Part shown: positions 1 through 9,519 of the stretch, piece after piece
How positions within the stretch are numbered: position 1 is the first letter of the stretch
How the letters are laid out: every line of letters begins with the position of its first letter
Assembly: GCA_025963615.1 (NCBI GenBank)
Contig: JAOQAL010000626.1
Coordinates: 1-13,062 of the forward strand
Direction of reading: 5' to 3'
Source: Chitinophagaceae bacterium
GTDB lineage: Bacteria; Bacteroidota; Bacteroidia; Chitinophagales; Chitinophagaceae
DNA: 13,062 bases
Notes under the pieces: model-generated
Databases searched by the model: none
Seen by the model: the letters and a program-made list of their open reading frames with translations, nothing else
Told to the model about the DNA's origin: nothing
Made by a program: the position numbers and the translations under genes

Positions 1-574
1 CCAAACTAACCGGCATTCCATTTACGCGGCATTCTATGATTCCACCCACGGAATCTTTGGCATCAATGGCCCGTTGTAATCCTTTTTCCAAATCAGTTTC
101 CCCACCGATTTCTGTAACAGCAGCTTCTATCTTTACCTGTGACATTATTTTTTTTGCAATAGCCCCTGCAGCCACCAACCCAGTTGTTAGCCTTGCACTG
201 AAATGCCCGCCACCCCGGTAATCTTCATGGCCACCAAATTTCTGATGGGCTACCCAATCAGCGTGACCGGGCCGGGGAATGCTGCGCTGTTTCTGATAAT
301 CTTCGCTGCGCGTATTATTATTTTCAAAAAAAATAGTGATGGGGAAGCCCGTTGTTTTACCGTTGAACAACCCGCTTTTGAAAAAAGGATAATCGGCTTC
401 CTGTCGGGGTGTGGTACCTTTTTGTTTACCCCCTTTTCTTCGTTCCAGGTCGGGAAGTAAATCCTCCGCGGTTAAAGACAAACCTGCCGGGCAACCATCG
501 ATAACAATTCCTACCGATTCGCCATGCGATTCGCCGAAGATGCTCACCCGAAAAAGGCGTCCAAAACTATTCAT
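1..574 (-). CDS. aroC: Chorismate synthase, N-terminal part (runs off the left edge)
   Basis: AroC converts 5-enolpyruvylshikimate-3-phosphate to chorismate, the last shikimate step, using reduced FMN as a catalytic cofactor. I translated the minus strand from the ATG at 574: 191 codons stay open to the edge, about half of a normal AroC. The family signature is clear: GESHG at residues 14-18 (conserved His17), the IDGCPAGL segment at 25-32, the RRKGGK stretch at 45-50, RPGHAD at 101-106 (His104), and a YRGGGHFSAR segment at 119-128 where many AroC proteins read GGGRSSAR. The start is supported by position: the ATG overlaps the last 8 bases of aroA, so the two genes are probably translationally coupled. 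The C-terminal half lies outside the window. Confidence 0.96.
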   Translation of the reverse strand, partial: MNSFGRLFRVSIFGESHGESVGIVIDGCPAGLSLTAEDLLPDLERRKGGKQKGTTPRQEADYPFFKSGLFNGKTTGFPITIFFENNNTRSEDYQKQRSIPRPGHADWVAHQKFGGHEDYRGGGHFSARLTTGLVAAGAIAKKIMSQVKIEAAVTEIGGETDLEKGLQRAIDAKDSVGGIIECRVNGMPVSL

Positions 575-3097: not shown

Positions 3098-4186
3098 TTA
3101 CGAATTCATAACCTTATTCTGGTGATTGATACTTTCCATGTGCACCGCGTCAAAATACTTCGTGATGAATTCCTTGCTCAATCCCAATTTATCGCCTTTC
3201 AAAAAAGCCCGTTCCAGAATTGAATTCCAGCGGTTAGTCTGAAGAATGGTAATGTTATTATTTTTTTTGTATTCCCCAATTTTTTCAGCAATCTTCATCC
3301 GCTGACCGATGATTTGCATCAGTTCATCATCCAGGTGATTAATCTGCTGGCGGAGTTTTTCCAGCGCCGCATGATATTCTTCTGAATTGACATCTTCTTT
3401 ACGCCAAATAATTGCATCAAGCATTTCGGCCAGGCGTTCAGGTGTTACCTGTTGTTTCGCATCGCTCCATGCATTATCAGGATCAACATGGCTTTCAATC
3501 ATCAATCCGTCAAAGTCAAGATCAATGGCTTTCTGCGCCACTTCCAGCAATATATCCCGGCGGCCACAGATATGCGAAGGATCGTTGATGATCATCATCT
3601 CAGGATTGCGGCGTTTCATTTCAATAGCCAGGTGCCACATCGGCGCGTTGCGGTATTCGGTATTACCATAGGAAGAAAATCCGCGGTGAATCAAACCGAT
3701 TTGTTTTACACCAGCTCTCGCTACCCGTTCCACTGCGCCGGACCATAATTCCAGATCCGGATTGATTGGATTCTTGATCAACACGGGTACATCTACTCCA
3801 CGCAAGGCATCGGCTACTTCCTGAACACTGAATGGATTCACCGTTGTTCTGGCACCAATCCAAAGCACATCTACCTCAAAGGTCAATGCATCTTCGACCT
3901 GTTTGCCGGTAGCTACTTCAACCGTTGTTGGCAGGCCTGTTAATTTCTTCGCCTGTTGCAGCCAGGGCAATCCCTTGGCGCCAATGCCCTCAAACAAACC
4001 AGGTTTGGTCCTGGGTTTCCAGATGCCGGCCCGGAGCATATCTACTTTGCCGGTGTTGGCTAAGCGTTGGGCTGTCGCCAATAACTGTTCTTCTGTTTCG
4101 GCGCTGCAGGGGCCGGAAATTATCAGGGGTCGTTTGTTCCATTTTCCCTGAGTTACTTCTTTCATGGTTTGTGTTGCTGTTTGCAT
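3098..4186 (-). CDS. Bifunctional DAHP synthase / chorismate mutase (AroQ type)
   Basis: The N-terminal domain condenses PEP and erythrose-4-phosphate to DAHP; the C-terminal domain rearranges chorismate to prephenate. Residues 18-260 are a DAHP synthase of the KDO8PS-like (type I-beta) fold: GPCSAE (25-30), RAGIWKPRTKPG (52-63), GARTTVNPFS (111-120), KNPINPD (138-144), IHRGFSS (166-172) and NDPSH (201-205). The metal ligands inferred from family spacing are C27, H205, E231 and D242. Residues 274-356 form an AroQ chorismate mutase helix bundle with R279, R296, K307, R319 and Q356 at the expected active-site spacing. The same fusion is known in Bacteroidota (for example Porphyromonas gingivalis), where the mutase domain also gives allosteric control. 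Starts at M1 or M8 are both possible; neither has a Shine-Dalgarno site. I see no consensus promoter in the 244 nt upstream, so read-through from tyrA is likely. Confidence 0.95.
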   Translation of the reverse strand: MQTATQTMKEVTQGKWNKRPLIISGPCSAETEEQLLATAQRLANTGKVDMLRAGIWKPRTKPGLFEGIGAKGLPWLQQAKKLTGLPTTVEVATGKQVEDALTFEVDVLWIGARTTVNPFSVQEVADALRGVDVPVLIKNPINPDLELWSGAVERVARAGVKQIGLIHRGFSSYGNTEYRNAPMWHLAIEMKRRNPEMMIINDPSHICGRRDILLEVAQKAIDLDFDGLMIESHVDPDNAWSDAKQQVTPERLAEMLDAIIWRKEDVNSEEYHAALEKLRQQINHLDDELMQIIGQRMKIAEKIGEYKKNNNITILQTNRWNSILERAFLKGDKLGLSKEFITKYFDAVHMESINHQNKVMNS

Positions 4187-4430: not shown

Positions 4431-5279
4431 TTATTTTATTATCCTCCTGATCGTATTCGCATCTTCAATCAATTTCTTTAAATCTCCGAAATTCTCCTGC
4501 TCAATACTATCCCTGAATTTCAATAGCTGTTCAATATGCTCATTCAATACGTCCAGTACGTTCACTTTATTTTGCATAAATACAGGAACCCACATCGCAG
4601 GATTACTTTTTGCCAGCCTCACCGTACTTTCAAAACCCGCGGAGGCTAATTCGAAAATGGCTTTCTCTTCTCTTTCTTTTTCCAGCACCGTATTGGCGAG
4701 CGCGAAGGACGTGATATGTGATATATGACTTACATACGCCGCATGCAGATCATGTGCCTTTGCTTCCATCTCCAGTAAGTGCATGCCTATTTTTTTATAC
4801 ATCGCTTTGGTCCAGCCGAGTGCATCCGGATCACTTTCATTGGCATTGCAGATAATCACGGCTTTGTTTTCAAATGCTCCTTTCACGGCCGCCTGCGGAC
4901 CGCTGTATTCTGTACCCCACATCGGGTGCGTAGCTACATATCTTCCTCTTTTCGGATGATCTTTGACCGCTTCAATGGATTGTGATTTTGTAGACCCCAG
5001 GTCAATCACAATCTGCTGATCAATTTTATCGAGTATCTGTGGTAATAACGTGACCACTGTATCAACCGGAATGGCTAATACCACCACATCCGACGCGGCA
5101 ATCGCTTCATCCAGTGGCCATGTTTCATCTACGAGCTCCAGTTCCACTGCCTTGGCTGCATGGTCTTTATTGGCATCAACACCAATCAATTTTGATGAAA
5201 TCTTCTTTTCATGCAGTTGAAGCGCCAGCGACCCACCAATGAGCCCCACGCCTACTATAGCTATTCTTTTTCTTTCCAT
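4431..5279 (-). CDS. tyrA: Prephenate dehydrogenase
   Basis: TyrA oxidatively decarboxylates prephenate to 4-hydroxyphenylpyruvate, the tyrosine-branch step. The 282 residues hold an N-terminal Rossmann domain with GVGLIGGS (10-17) and Asp35 at the end of the second strand, which suggests NAD rather than NADP. LGSTKS (94-99) follows, then the HPMWGTE segment with the family catalytic His118, SHISHITS (184-191), and R221 in the VRLAKSNPAMW stretch that binds prephenate in homologues. There is no C-terminal ACT domain and no fused mutase; mutase activity comes from the DAHP synthase fusion downstream. The ATG lies 31 nt after the aminotransferase stop, so these genes are probably cotranscribed under the pheA attenuator. 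Confidence 0.95.
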   Translation of the reverse strand: MERKRIAIVGVGLIGGSLALQLHEKKISSKLIGVDANKDHAAKAVELELVDETWPLDEAIAASDVVVLAIPVDTVVTLLPQILDKIDQQIVIDLGSTKSQSIEAVKDHPKRGRYVATHPMWGTEYSGPQAAVKGAFENKAVIICNANESDPDALGWTKAMYKKIGMHLLEMEAKAHDLHAAYVSHISHITSFALANTVLEKEREEKAIFELASAGFESTVRLAKSNPAMWVPVFMQNKVNVLDVLNEHIEQLLKFRDSIEQENFGDLKKLIEDANTIRRIIK

Positions 5280-6633: not shown

Positions 6634-7563
6634 CTACTTCCACACCCCTCTCTTATAAATTCCATAAATCTTCAAATGCTCTGTTTTCGGTTTAATGGTC
6701 TTCATTACATCGTTAAATTGCTGCAGGCTGTCAAATTCCATATCCGCATGAAAACTGTACTTAAAATCACTACCTGGAATCGGGAAACTCTGCAGTTTGC
6801 TGAGATTAATGCCGCCATCCGAAATGGCTGTCAATACTTTTGCAAGACTACCTTTTGAATGGTCAGTATGAAAATTAACTGATGCTTTATCGGCACCTTT
6901 TATTTCTGTAATGGTCTCTTCACATTTTAAAATCAGGAACCTTGTATAATTGTTTTTAAGTGTATGAATGTTCGGAGCGATCATATCCAGATCGTATAAA
7001 TCAGCAGCCAGTTTGCTGGCGATGGCGGCAATATGCTTGCTCTTATGCTGGTGAACATGTTTTGCGCTTAAGGCGGTATCTTCGGTTTCTACCAATTTCC
7101 ATTTATATTGATCCAGGAAATCATAACATTGCTGCAGCGCCATGGTATGTGAATGTACTTCACGGATATCTTCCAGTTTTACGCCGGGGTTTACCAATAA
7201 GTTTTGCTTTATGTGCAGGTATACTTCCCCGGCAATTTTTAGATTTGATTTTTGCAGCAGGTTATAATTGGGAAGGATGCTTCCGGCAATGGAATTTTCG
7301 ATCGCCATGACTGCACCATCACTTTCGTTTTTATGCGCGGCGATCCTGACCACGTCACGAAAAGTAGGACAGGTAATAACTTCAACATTTTTACCAAAGA
7401 ACAATTGGGCTACCATCTGGTGAAAACTACCTTCATAACCCTGTATCGCAATACGGCCACCCGCTGGTGCCGAAAGAGGCGGAACCACCAGCATGCGATC
7501 TTTGCTTTTCGACGCATCTTCCTGCTTTCGATCCATTTTTTTCCTGGTTGCTTTTTCTGCCAT
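6634..7563 (-). CDS. pheA: Prephenate dehydratase with C-terminal ACT domain
   Basis: PheA decarboxylates and dehydrates prephenate to phenylpyruvate, the phenylalanine-branch step. In the 309 residues a dehydratase domain spans about 37-215: AIQGYEGSFHQ (39-49), AIENSIAGS (87-95), a HSHTMALQQC segment (137-146), EDTALSA (161-167) and the catalytic NYTRF (205-209). An ACT domain follows (about 227-305), with KGSLAKVL and INLSKLQSFP. The phenylalanine-binding ESRP motif known from enteric and Gram-positive enzymes reads QSFP here. The first 35 residues are a lysine-rich extension. The ATG at 7563 has AAGGAA 9 bases upstream; M24 is an alternative. It is the first structural gene after the Phe/Tyr attenuator, 24 nt or more ahead of the aminotransferase. 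Confidence 0.95.
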   Translation of the reverse strand: MAEKATRKKMDRKQEDASKSKDRMLVVPPLSAPAGGRIAIQGYEGSFHQMVAQLFFGKNVEVITCPTFRDVVRIAAHKNESDGAVMAIENSIAGSILPNYNLLQKSNLKIAGEVYLHIKQNLLVNPGVKLEDIREVHSHTMALQQCYDFLDQYKWKLVETEDTALSAKHVHQHKSKHIAAIASKLAADLYDLDMIAPNIHTLKNNYTRFLILKCEETITEIKGADKASVNFHTDHSKGSLAKVLTAISDGGINLSKLQSFPIPGSDFKYSFHADMEFDSLQQFNDVMKTIKPKTEHLKIYGIYKRGVWK

Positions 7564-7636: not shown

Positions 7637-7670
7637 AAAACAAGAATCCCGGCTTTAGGCCGGGATTCTT
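7637..7670 (-). terminator. Attenuator terminator of the pheA leader
   Basis: On the minus strand a perfect 12-bp stem (AAGAATCCCGGC, 7670-7659; GCCGGGATTCTT, 7653-7642) with a 5-nt loop is followed by G and TTTT (7640-7637). It lies between the leader peptide stop and the pheA ATG. Its 5' arm is also the 3' strand of the alternative antiterminator. No other hairpin with a T-run lies after the helicase stop, so it may also end helicase transcripts. Confidence 0.85.
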
Positions 7671-7721
7671 TATGTTGATGTTAGTTTACACTATTTAGCT
7701 TTCAACAAAAGCAATCCCGGC
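7659..7721 (-). promoter_or_regulatory. Antiterminator of the pheA attenuator
   Basis: The RNA segment 7721-7702 (starting GCCGGGATT, inside the last third of the leader ORF) can pair with 7678-7659 (ending AATCCCGGC). I count 9 + 4 + 6 = 19 Watson-Crick pairs, interrupted by one bulged base on each strand (7712 and 7672). The helix uses up the whole 5' arm of the terminator, so the two structures exclude each other. Confidence 0.8.
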
Positions 7722-7780
7722 TTCTTACTAAAAAAGAAGTAGTAAAAATAGAAACCAAAATATGTCTTTGTTGTCATCAT
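7691..7780 (-). CDS. Phe/Tyr-rich leader peptide of the pheA operon (pheL-like)
   Basis: A 29-residue ORF begins at ATG 7780 (a second ATG follows at once) and ends at TAG 7693-7691, about 130 nt before pheA. Residues 7-17 read YFGFYFYYFFF: six Phe and four Tyr in eleven positions, using TTT, TTC, TAT and TAC. Its role would be to sense charged tRNA-Phe and tRNA-Tyr. A ribosome held in this run covers segment 1 (7773-7766) and leaves the antiterminator strand free; a ribosome that reads on covers the antiterminator strand, and the terminator forms. E. coli PheL is a 15-residue Phe-rich analogue by family knowledge, but this peptide is longer, mixes in Tyr, and ends with PGLLLLKAK encoded by the antiterminator strand itself. 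It was too short to be called by length alone; codon content plus structure make the case. Confidence 0.85.
   Translation of the reverse strand: MMTTKTYFGFYFYYFFFSKKPGLLLLKAK
7703..7773 (-). promoter_or_regulatory. Anti-antiterminator (1:2) pairing in the leader RNA
   Basis: Segment 1 CAACAAAG (7773-7766, leader codons 3-5) can pair with CTTTTGTTG (7711-7703) through 8 pairs with one bulged T. This masks the distal part of the antiterminator strand when the leader ORF is not being translated. A second small hairpin, CTTCTT/AAGAAG (7739-7734 with 7726-7721), falls in the Phe run and touches the first base of the antiterminator strand. Confidence 0.55.
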
Positions 7781-7787
7781 GAGTTGG

Positions 7788-7795
7788 CAAATATA
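7788..7795 (-). promoter_or_regulatory. -7 box of the pheA operon promoter
   Basis: TATATTTG on the minus strand is an exact TAnnTTTG box. Nineteen bases upstream the -33 position reads TTTT rather than TTTG, just past the helicase stop codon. The box ends 7 nt before the leader peptide ATG, so the transcript would begin at or a few bases before that ATG. Confidence 0.6.
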
Positions 7796-7821: not shown

Positions 7822-9519
7822 TTATCTCCTGCTGCCACCACTTTCGGCGTCATTCATCCGGATTTTGCGGCCTTTGAAATTTTTACCATCCATCGCTTTA
7901 ATCATTTTTTTACCTGCTAACGGTTCAATCTCAATCCAGCTATTCATTTCCTTCATATCAATGCGCCCCAGTACTTCTTTCTTTAAGTCACTCATATCAA
8001 GCACAAACTGGAGGAAACTTGCTTTATAAAAACCGTCTTTCGTTCCAAGATTTACGAACAATCGTTGGTAATTTCCATTGCCGCCAAAACTTCTGCCTTT
8101 GGTATCGCGATCCCGGTCCCTTGTAGCCGCAGGCCGTTCAGGTCTTTCGCCCCTGCGATCGCTGCCCCTTCTGTCATCCGTACGCATATTCAGGTCAGCG
8201 GCATTTTCATAGTACTTCAGAAAACGGTCGAATTCAAGGGCCGCGACTTTTTGCAAAATTTCTTCTTTTTCAATATGCCCAAATTTTTCTTTCAAAATCG
8301 GCAGATACGTTTCATAATCACCATGACTGATATCCGCCTGCAGCATCTTATCAATAAAGTGAAAGAATTGTTTACGGCAAACATCTTTGCCAGAAGGGAT
8401 ATCCATTTTATGAAGCCGGGTATTGACCAGCCTTTCGATCTGGCGTAACCGGTAGGTATCCTTGGGTGTGACAATTGAAATGGAAATACCACTTTTACCG
8501 GCACGACCGGTACGGCCACTCCGGTGCGTATATACCTCCATATCATCGGGAAGTTCAAAGTTGATTACATGGGTGATGCCGGCTACATCAATACCCCTGG
8601 CCGCGACATCCGTAGCTATTAAGAGTTGTAACTGCTTTTCCCGGAAATGGCCCATCACTTTATCACGCTGCTGCTGGGTCAGATCGCCATGCAACGCTTC
8701 AATATCATAACCTTCACGCACCAATTGTTCTGAAATATCCTGCGCATCCGCCTTGGTACGGGTAAAAATAATTCCATAAATACCCGGATTGAAATCAATG
8801 ATACGCTTCAGCGTTTCATACCGGTTAACATGCTGAGTTACATAATAATGATGGTCAATATCCGCATTACCGGCATTGACCTTTCCGATGGTGATCTCAA
8901 AAGGCTGGTTCATGTAGCGCTTGCTGACCTGCTTTATTTCAGTCGGCATCGTGGCGCTGAATAACCAGATACTTTGCCGCTTGGGCGTATTTTTTAAAAT
9001 GAATTCAATATCATCCTTAAAACCCATGTTCAGCATTTCATCTGCCTCATCCAGTATTACGTAATGAATATTATCCAGATTAATTGCTTTTCGTTCTATC
9101 AAATCAATTAAGCGGCCAGGTGTCGCAACAACGATATGGGTACCTCTTTTTAAATCCCGTATCTGTTGTGTAATGGATGTACCACCATATACGGCCGTAA
9201 CCGCAACGAGTGTTGATTTCTTTTTGAAAGAATCCAGGTCTTTTGTAATCTGCATGCAGAGTTCCCGGGTGGGGCAAACGACCAATGCCTGTGGAAACCT
9301 GTCCGCCTTATTAATCAGTTGTAATAAGGGTAACCCGAAAGCCGCGGTTTTACCCGTTCCGGTTTGCGCCAAACCAATAAAATCCTTGGTGCCCTGTAAT
9401 AAAACGGGAATGGCCTTTTCCTGTATCGCTGTGGGTTGCGTAAATCCTAATGCTGCAATAGATTGTAGTAGTCCTTCTTCAATTCCTAATGCCTCAAACG
9501 TAGTTGCTGTCTGTACCAT
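7822..9519 (-). CDS. DEAD-box ATP-dependent RNA helicase with DbpA-type RNA-binding domain
   Basis: An RNA-remodelling helicase of 565 residues (DeaD/CsdA/DbpA group), likely active in ribosome assembly or mRNA turnover. Motifs in order: Q motif with TAIQ (30-33), AQTGTGKT (51-58), PTREL (83-87), TPGR (133-136), DEAD (157-160), SAT (188-190), IIFTRTKADAQ (250-260), HGD (277-279), ATDVAARGID (302-311) and HRSGRTGR (332-339). A helical region follows, then an Arg/Asp-rich linker (446-476) and a C-terminal DbpA-like RNA-binding domain (485-555, starting RLFVNLG). The start is supported by the standard N-terminus, eight residues before the conserved Phe of the Q motif. A TACTTTTG box lies 29 bases upstream. 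Downstream RNA can enter the pheA attenuator. It could be annotated as deaD or csdA; the exact subfamily is not decided here. Confidence 0.95.
   Translation of the reverse strand: MVQTATTFEALGIEEGLLQSIAALGFTQPTAIQEKAIPVLLQGTKDFIGLAQTGTGKTAAFGLPLLQLINKADRFPQALVVCPTRELCMQITKDLDSFKKKSTLVAVTAVYGGTSITQQIRDLKRGTHIVVATPGRLIDLIERKAINLDNIHYVILDEADEMLNMGFKDDIEFILKNTPKRQSIWLFSATMPTEIKQVSKRYMNQPFEITIGKVNAGNADIDHHYYVTQHVNRYETLKRIIDFNPGIYGIIFTRTKADAQDISEQLVREGYDIEALHGDLTQQQRDKVMGHFREKQLQLLIATDVAARGIDVAGITHVINFELPDDMEVYTHRSGRTGRAGKSGISISIVTPKDTYRLRQIERLVNTRLHKMDIPSGKDVCRKQFFHFIDKMLQADISHGDYETYLPILKEKFGHIEKEEILQKVAALEFDRFLKYYENAADLNMRTDDRRGSDRRGERPERPAATRDRDRDTKGRSFGGNGNYQRLFVNLGTKDGFYKASFLQFVLDMSDLKKEVLGRIDMKEMNSWIEIEPLAGKKMIKAMDGKNFKGRKIRMNDAESGGSRR

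What the first reader, a model, noticed from the sequence alone, without database searches (positions are those of the whole stretch)
7637..7795. Ribosome-mediated Phe/Tyr attenuator in front of a Bacteroidota pheA-tyrA operon
All parts of a classical attenuator occur in order: a promoter box, a 29-codon ORF with YFGFYFYYFFF, a segment-1 strand (7773-7766), an antiterminator strand (7721-7702), its partner (7678-7659), and a perfect 12-bp terminator with a T-run (7670-7637) ahead of pheA. The 19-bp antiterminator and the terminator share the same strand and exclude one another. The position of the Phe/Tyr run fits: a stalled ribosome frees the antiterminator strand, while a moving one covers it. 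Classical leader-peptide control is best known from enteric bacteria. I cannot search whether this Bacteroidota element has been described.
Basis: partly seen in the sequence, partly recalled or inferred. Interest (0 to 1): 0.93.

Follow-up and report, generated by a model that had tools for sequence, protein, structure and literature searches.

The report
Leaderless Phe/Tyr attenuator in Bacteroidota
A tiny gene full of phenylalanine and tyrosine codons sits in front of the genes that make these two amino acids and very probably works as a ribosome-driven switch that stops transcription when both are plentiful; the same kind of switch was found in most of the related bacteria examined.

Summary
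On the minus strand a Bacteroidota promoter box (7795-7788) is followed by a 29-codon ORF with an 11-residue Phe/Tyr-rich run, an antiterminator (7721-7702 with 7678-7659) and a terminator (7670-7642) that shares its strand, ahead of pheA-aminotransferase-tyrA. All 80 fetched relatives have such an ORF upstream of pheA; 79 of 80 plus the window have both hairpins by script, the last by eye. In a folding model of 80 leaders the antiterminator is lost within -2 to +4 codons of the last F/Y codon. Of 100 further hand-picked pheA upstream regions, 58 have leader plus switch (54 of 74 in the own class, 4 of 26 outside) against 1 of 100 on the reverse strand. New: a perfect TAnnTTTG ends 4-8 nt before the leader ATG in 72 of 81 (22 of 11,028 control ATGs), so the transcript should be leaderless. 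The family also has His and Trp leaders and perhaps Thr. Prior art: PMC9723704 names pheA and hisG 5' elements in Flavobacteriaceae and 'strong clues' for leader-peptide attenuation. A new variant of classical attenuation; nothing was measured in a cell.

The parts
7788..7795 (-). promoter -7 box TATATTTG (TAnnTTTG type); predicted transcript start about 7783-7782
   Evidence: perfect TAnnTTTG 7 nt before ATG; start 4-5 nt after the box in F. johnsoniae (PMC6847099 passages). No TTG at the -33 position in the window itself (sequence)
7691..7780 (-). leader ORF, 29 codons plus TAG; F/Y run at codons 7-17
   Evidence: such an ORF in 80 of 80 relatives
   Evidence: pairs with strand 2 in the free fold; 1:2 helix 81.6% of 794 cells paired in relatives
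7702..7721 (-). strand 2, antiterminator 5' arm, inside the leader ORF
7659..7678 (-). strand 3, shared by antiterminator (7678-7659) and terminator (7670-7659)
7637..7653 (-). strand 4 of the terminator (7653-7642) and its U-tract (to 7637)
6634..7563 (-). pheA, prephenate dehydratase, first gene after the attenuator
   Evidence: Pfam PF00800
5311..6609 (-). class I/II aminotransferase (true start uncertain)
   Evidence: Pfam PF00155; downstream of pheA on the same strand in 80 of 80 relatives
4431..5279 (-). tyrA, prephenate dehydrogenase
   Evidence: Pfam PF02153, PF20463; same strand downstream in 78 of 78 relatives with room
3098..4186 (-). DAHP synthase/chorismate mutase fusion; same strand, shared transcript assumed
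   Evidence: Pfam PF00793, PF01817
1912..2931 (-). aroB, 3-dehydroquinate synthase; shared transcript assumed (a weak terminator-like site lies before it at 2982-2964)
   Evidence: Pfam PF01761, PF24621
567..1883 (-). aroA, EPSP synthase; shared transcript assumed
   Evidence: Pfam PF00275
2..574 (-). aroC, chorismate synthase, cut by the window end; shared transcript assumed
   Evidence: Pfam PF01264

Best explanation
This is a ribosome-mediated transcription attenuator that senses charged tRNA-Phe and tRNA-Tyr and controls an aromatic amino acid operon. Transcription starts almost at the leader AUG (leaderless), so a ribosome can load as soon as the 5' end emerges. If tRNA-Phe or tRNA-Tyr is short, the ribosome waits within codons 7-17; strand 2 stays free and pairs with strand 3 as soon as that is made, so the terminator is held off and the operon is read. 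If supply is good, the ribosome runs on over strand 2, which is part of the ORF; strand 3 stays single until strand 4 appears, the 3:4 terminator forms and transcription stops near 7637. Without a ribosome, strand 1 can pair with strand 2 first, which would make the terminator the default. Shown: parts, conservation, covariation, geometry in a folding model. Inferred: start site, ribosome-polymerase coupling, the no-ribosome default, and direction and size of the response.
For: 80 of 80 relatives have the F/Y ORF; 79 of 80 and the window have both hairpins by script. Two-sided changes in 7 of 13 pairs of 3:4, 8 of 19 of 2:3 and 7 of 10 of 1:2; covariation scores above all 500 shuffles for each. 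F/Y codons make up 534 of 560 of the last seven codons of the run in 80 leaders; both F and Y in 80 of 80; no TTA, TTG, CTT, ATT or GTT among the 786 codons of the dense windows. In the window 17-18 antiterminator pairs form at every tested ribosome position up to codon 17 and at most 1 at those from 19 to 26; in 80 leaders the loss lies -2 to +4 codons from the last F/Y codon, 74 of 80 at 0 to +3. Leader plus switch in 58 of 100 further pheA upstreams, 1 of 100 on the reverse strand. The gene upstream is the window's helicase in only 32 of 78 relatives, while the aminotransferase follows pheA in 80 of 80 and tyrA in 78 of 78.
Against: No expression data. Once strand 4 is present the model favours the terminator at every tested ribosome position, so the choice must be kinetic; and at the moment strand 3 is complete the model without a ribosome prefers 2:3 (-30.1) over a 1:2 arm (-21.1), so the no-ribosome default is unsure. 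At codons 28 and 30, 4 and 9 antiterminator pairs come back. Further pair types do not exceed shuffles for 2:3 (232/500) and 1:2 (203/500); pairs changed on both sides are reached by 18/500 and 47/500 shuffles; slid versions of 2:3 reach the same number of such pairs (8), and one slid version of 1:2 has more two-sided cells (21 against 14). 42 of 100 further pheA upstreams lack leader plus switch. The U-tract of the window is short.
Confidence: 0.92

Rival explanations
1. Attenuator as above, but not leaderless: the box before the ATG is not the main promoter, and the transcript starts further upstream.
For: The start site was not measured. The window lacks a TTG at -33. In families f5 and f3 the nearest box is mostly 17-29 nt before ATG.
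Against: Perfect box ending 4-8 nt before ATG in 72 of 81 against 22 of 11,028 control ATGs. A TTG starts 21-23 nt upstream of that box in 60 of 76; any TTG at 18-24 nt in 65 of 76 against 14 of 76 at 32-38 nt.
Confidence: 0.12
2. Nascent-chain arrest: the F/Y-rich peptide itself stalls the ribosome in response to a free ligand (TnaC-like, recalled), and the same hairpins read out the stall.
For: A conserved peptide in front of a switch would look alike.
Against: F and Y replace each other freely, run length varies by whole codons, and the conserved residues outside the run lie in strands 1 and 2 of the RNA, which gives them another reason to be kept. His- and Trp-rich leaders stand before hisG and trpE in the same family, the pattern expected of codon sensing.
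Confidence: 0.04
3. An ordinary terminator of the upstream helicase gene next to a chance F/Y-rich ORF.
For: The hairpin lies downstream of a gene on the same strand.
Against: The leader is found with pheA in 80 of 80 relatives although the helicase is upstream in only 32 of 78; strand 2 covaries with strand 3.
Confidence: 0.01

Closest known systems
pheA leader attenuator of enteric bacteria (Rfam RF01859 Phe_leader)
   Same: Leader peptide rich in the regulated amino acid, mutually exclusive 2:3 and 3:4 hairpins, terminator before pheA.
   Different: No family match (28.3 bits against a cut-off of 55, and 27.5 on the wrong strand). Here F and Y are interleaved, strand 2 lies inside the ORF with the stop after it, strand 1 lies before the run, and the start is probably leaderless. 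That the stop lies before strand 2 in the E. coli trp leader is recalled.
5' elements of pheA and hisG in Flavobacteriaceae (Flavobacterium psychrophilum transcriptome, PMC9723704)
   Same: Same gene and phylum; [quoted passage not shown] Probably the same element in another family.
   Different: The text read gives no leader sequence, no switch and no codon run for pheA; its supplement was not open to me. It reports leaderless mRNAs as only 5.5%.
Sinorhizobium meliloti trpL attenuator (rnTrpL)
   Same: Attenuator transcript begins with the ATG of the leader ORF (PMC7298713 passages), a precedent for a leaderless leader peptide.
   Different: Alphaproteobacterium, Trp, other promoter type; unrelated in sequence as far as seen (not compared here).
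Bacteroid-trp RNA (Rfam RF01692)
   Same: Candidate cis-regulatory RNA of Bacteroidetes named after trp (table row seen, PMC2864571).
   Different: No match in the window at E up to 1, nor at the gathering score in 20 loci including the own-genome trp, his and thr leaders.

Membership tests
Ribosome-mediated transcription attenuator | Short leader ORF with a run of codons for the product amino acid of the operon | tested here: met
   80 of 80 relatives; codons
Ribosome-mediated transcription attenuator | Intrinsic terminator between leader ORF and first gene | tested here: met
   79 of 80 relatives and the window by script, L035 by eye
Ribosome-mediated transcription attenuator | Antiterminator that shares a strand with the terminator, both conserved by covariation | tested here: met
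   weaker measures told in the Against line
Ribosome-mediated transcription attenuator | Run placed so that a stalled ribosome frees strand 2 and a moving one covers it | tested here: met
   folding with masked ribosome, 80 leaders
Ribosome-mediated transcription attenuator | Read-through rises when the amino acid is short and needs translation of the leader | not testable with these tools
   needs RNA-seq or a reporter
Rfam RF01859 Phe_leader | Covariance model score at or above the gathering score | tested here: not met
   28.3 bits against 55; 27.5 bits on the opposite strand
Rfam RF01692 Bacteroid-trp | Covariance model score at or above the gathering score | tested here: not met
   no match in the window or in 20 loci
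T-box riboswitch | Match to a T-box covariance model | tested here: not met
   no T-box match in the Rfam scan at E up to 1
Leaderless mRNA | Transcript starts at or within a few nt of the AUG | tested here: inconclusive
   promoter spacing predicts a 0-3 nt 5' UTR in 70 of 76 leaders with a perfect box; start not mapped

The most novel reading that the evidence does not exclude
This family (Chitinophagaceae, by record titles) runs a set of leaderless attenuators (Phe/Tyr, His, Trp, perhaps Thr) in which the promoter is fused to the start codon, so that the first ribosome loads as the RNA 5' end emerges. That would be how bacteria that do not use Shine-Dalgarno sequences keep ribosome and RNA polymerase in step, and it makes tight coupling in Bacteroidota directly testable. 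The Phe/Tyr form is older than the family and has moved between classes together with its operon.
Probability: 0.6. Interest if true: 0.75.

Novelty: new variant of a known kind. Interest (0 to 1): 0.6.

Why it matters
Classical attenuation needs a ribosome closely behind RNA polymerase. Bacteroidetes naturally lack Shine-Dalgarno sequences (PMC6847099, abstract seen), and leaderless mRNAs are reported as uncommon there: 5.5% in F. psychrophilum (PMC9723704), about 3.7% with 5' UTRs under 10 nt in B. thetaiotaomicron (PMC7366714). A conserved element best read as ribosome-mediated attenuation suggests that coupling works in this phylum, and in this family the start codon seems to sit at the promoter. 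No Rfam family reaches its threshold for the leaders tried, so annotation by Rfam will miss them.

Tried and rejected
Rfam Phe_leader: below threshold and nearly as good on the wrong strand. Terminator of the upstream helicase: rejected. ilvB: 13 of the 17 loci fetched (those over the family cut-off) were scanned for an Ile/Leu/Val run; one weak hit 831 nt away. The homoserine dehydrogenase loci should not reach the thrA start, so 13 upstream stretches were fetched instead; 10 of 13 show a Thr/Ile-rich ORF, without a control, the weakest of the extra leaders. For trpE I scanned 15 of the 20 loci fetched, leaving out five weaker matches. The His scan of both strands gave two off-place hits in 16 loci (L187, L192).

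The first structure script set the run end wrongly for several loci (L035, L044, L047, L048, L051, L068), left L073 out and found no terminator for L074; one search mended these except L035, which is also absent (n = 80 = 79 relatives plus window). In one search the leader start was set wrongly for L073, L023 and L027; mended.

The 100 extra regions are no random sample: 40 picked by hand, mostly the best-ranking, from the 138 hits of the phylum search; 20 order and 20 family members from the 106 hits; and 20 from families of other classes (f12 and f15 twice; L176 is only 246 bases). At least two family members (L143, L144) repeat a leader of the set. L110 has a leader with 6 F/Y and a switch and was missed by the threshold. 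L089 has a leader but no terminator by the script.

Literature: ten searches; the library lacks most subscription journals. I recall comparative surveys of classical attenuation from the Lyubetsky group that may include Bacteroidetes; I could not see them.

Full report
What is there. On its minus strand the window carries pheA (7563-6634), a class I/II aminotransferase, tyrA, a DAHP synthase/chorismate mutase fusion, aroB, aroA and the start of aroC. That the genes after tyrA share the transcript is assumed. Between the upstream DEAD-box helicase gene (7822-9519) and pheA lies the element in question. The free RNA folds into a 1:2 arm plus the terminator at -46.8 kcal/mol, z -6.2.

Conservation among relatives. 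A scan of genome contigs with the PheA protein kept the best 80 of 220 loci. Their titles are mostly Chitinophagaceae, or MAGs titled Bacteroidetes, Bacteroidota or Sphingobacteriales. All 80 have an ORF with 6 to 11 F/Y within 12 residues in the 700 nt upstream. A script found terminator and antiterminator in 79 of the 80 and in the window; L035 shows them by eye. Median energies are -25 (2:3) and -21 kcal/mol (3:4). In the dense windows of 80 leaders 687 of 786 codons are TTT, TTC, TAT or TAC. These windows were chosen for density, so the telling facts are that all 80 hold both F and Y, that one-base neighbours such as TTA, TTG, CTT, ATT and GTT do not occur in them, and that third positions are T (431) or C (256).

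Covariation. On alignment A1 (81 rows, 80 distinct) helix 3:4 has 92.8% of 1021 cells paired and two-sided changes in 7 of 13 pairs; 2:3 has 88.5% of 1499 cells and 8 of 19; 1:2 has 81.6% of 794 cells and 7 of 10. The covariation score and the percentage paired exceed all 500 shuffles for each helix, and the percentage falls to 34-63% when the partner is slid. Against this: further pair types do not exceed shuffles for 2:3 (232/500) or 1:2 (203/500); two-sided pairs are reached by 2, 18 and 47 of 500 shuffles; slid 2:3 reaches 8 such pairs as well; slid 1:2 (-1) has 21 two-sided cells against 14; and shuffles do not allow for relatedness. The residues conserved outside the run (T-K-A-Y before it, K-P-G-M-L-L-L after it) are those encoded by strands 1 and 2.

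Geometry. I masked 17 nt behind and 12 nt from the first base of the A-site codon and folded the RNA at the moment strand 3 is complete. In the window 17-18 antiterminator pairs form at every tested ribosome position up to codon 17, the last Phe; 14 remain at codon 18, at most 1 at the tested codons from 19 to 26, and 4 and 9 at codons 28 and 30. In 80 leaders the last codon that keeps at least half of the antiterminator lies -2 to +4 codons from the last F/Y codon of the dense window, 74 of 80 at 0 to +3. Once strand 4 is present the terminator is favoured at every tested position, so the decision must be kinetic. Without a ribosome the 1:2 arm (-21.1) forms before strand 3 exists, but 2:3 is the better fold once strand 3 is out (-30.1), so the no-ribosome default is unsure.

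Leaderless start. In Flavobacterium johnsoniae many starts lie 4-5 nt after TAnnTTTG (PMC6847099, passages). In 72 of 81 leaders a perfect TAnnTTTG ends 4-8 nt before the leader ATG; among 11,028 other ATGs of the same loci 22 do. A TTG, as of the -33 element, starts 21-23 nt upstream of the box in 60 of 76, though not in the window. The predicted 5' UTR is 0-3 nt in 70 of 76. In family f5 the nearest box is 8-41 nt away, 12 of 15 at 18-29, and in f3 17-18 nt; f2 and f48 are mixed, some with short spacing. So the short spacing is the rule in this family and scattered elsewhere.

Reach. Among 100 further upstream regions (L082-L181; choice told under Tried and rejected) 62 have the leader and 58 leader plus switch; the reverse strands of the same regions give 10 and 1. 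Own class: 54 of 74 with switch (own family 24 of 25; f5 15 of 15; f3 4 of 5; f48 3 of 4; f8 2 of 4; f2 6 of 11, with 9 leaders; f9 0 of 1, with 1 leader; f4 0 of 2; f34 0 of 1; f35 0 of 3; f43 0 of 3). Outside the class: 4 of 26. Those four (L087, L088, L103, L118) have a PheA 40-57% identical to the window's, while the other members fetched of their four families (L119, L177, L179, L166, L173) have no leader: transfer of the operon with its attenuator, or misbinned contigs. Stem sequences differ widely between families while the switch is kept.

Other operons. In the family (own genome included) hisG has an HHH-rich leader in 15 of 16 loci (own MKQNIHIHHHHTYPLR), trpE a WWW leader in 14 of 15 loci scanned (own MNQKITNKLWWWHTSSSGVL), thrA a Thr/Ile-rich ORF in 10 of 13 (looser test). 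A box with at least 5 of 6 letters lies 4-7 nt before ATG in 10 of 15 trp leaders and 4-10 nt before it in 11 of 16 his loci. Among 20 loci scanned, no leader reached an Rfam gathering score.

Prior art. PMC9723704 (passages and one section read) reports for F. [quoted passage not shown] PMC7366714 (passages) mentions sORFs reminiscent of leader peptides in B. thetaiotaomicron. PMC7298713 (passages) gives the precedent of an attenuator RNA that begins with the leader ATG. PMC8305728 (passages), on his genes of Bacteroidota, speaks of attenuation in the passages seen only for enteric bacteria. The searches showed me no description of the Phe/Tyr leader sequence, its switch, or leaderless attenuators in Bacteroidota; they cover one open library and mostly listings.

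Verdict. It works like the classical attenuators and meets their structural features as tested. It differs by its probable leaderless start, by strand 2 lying inside the ORF, and by sensing two amino acids. The physiological response remains to be measured.

Noticed in passing
L188 (+ strand, ORF from base 1270), own genome contig C559; L182-L197: His-rich leader ORF (MKQNIHIHHHHTYPLR) upstream of hisG with a TAnnTTTG box 9 nt before ATG; HHH-rich leaders in 15 of 16 family loci.
   Followed up: partly
L261 (+ strand, TGGTGGTGG near base 1334), own genome contig C122; L248-L262: Trp leader ORF (MNQKITNKLWWWHTSSSGVL) upstream of the trpE-like gene; WWW in 14 of 15 loci scanned, no Rfam match at the gathering score in the three scanned.
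   Followed up: partly
L237 (+ strand, ORF from base 669), own genome contig C665; L235-L247: Thr/Ile-rich short ORF upstream of a fused aspartokinase/homoserine dehydrogenase-like gene; 10 of 13 loci by a loose test without control.
   Followed up: partly
L087, L088, L103, L118: Genomes outside the class carry a PheA 40-57% identical to the window's and the leader plus switch, while the other fetched members of their families lack it: possible transfer of the operon with its attenuator, or misbinning.
   Followed up: no
L089-L099, L104, L106-L111: Several leaders outside the family mix Trp codons into or next to the Phe/Tyr run (e.g. L096, L099, L104, L106-L108, L111), as if all three aromatic amino acids were sensed.
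   Followed up: no
window 7563-7456: The window's PheA open frame begins about 36 residues before the point where most relatives' matches begin, so its true start codon may lie further downstream.
   Followed up: no
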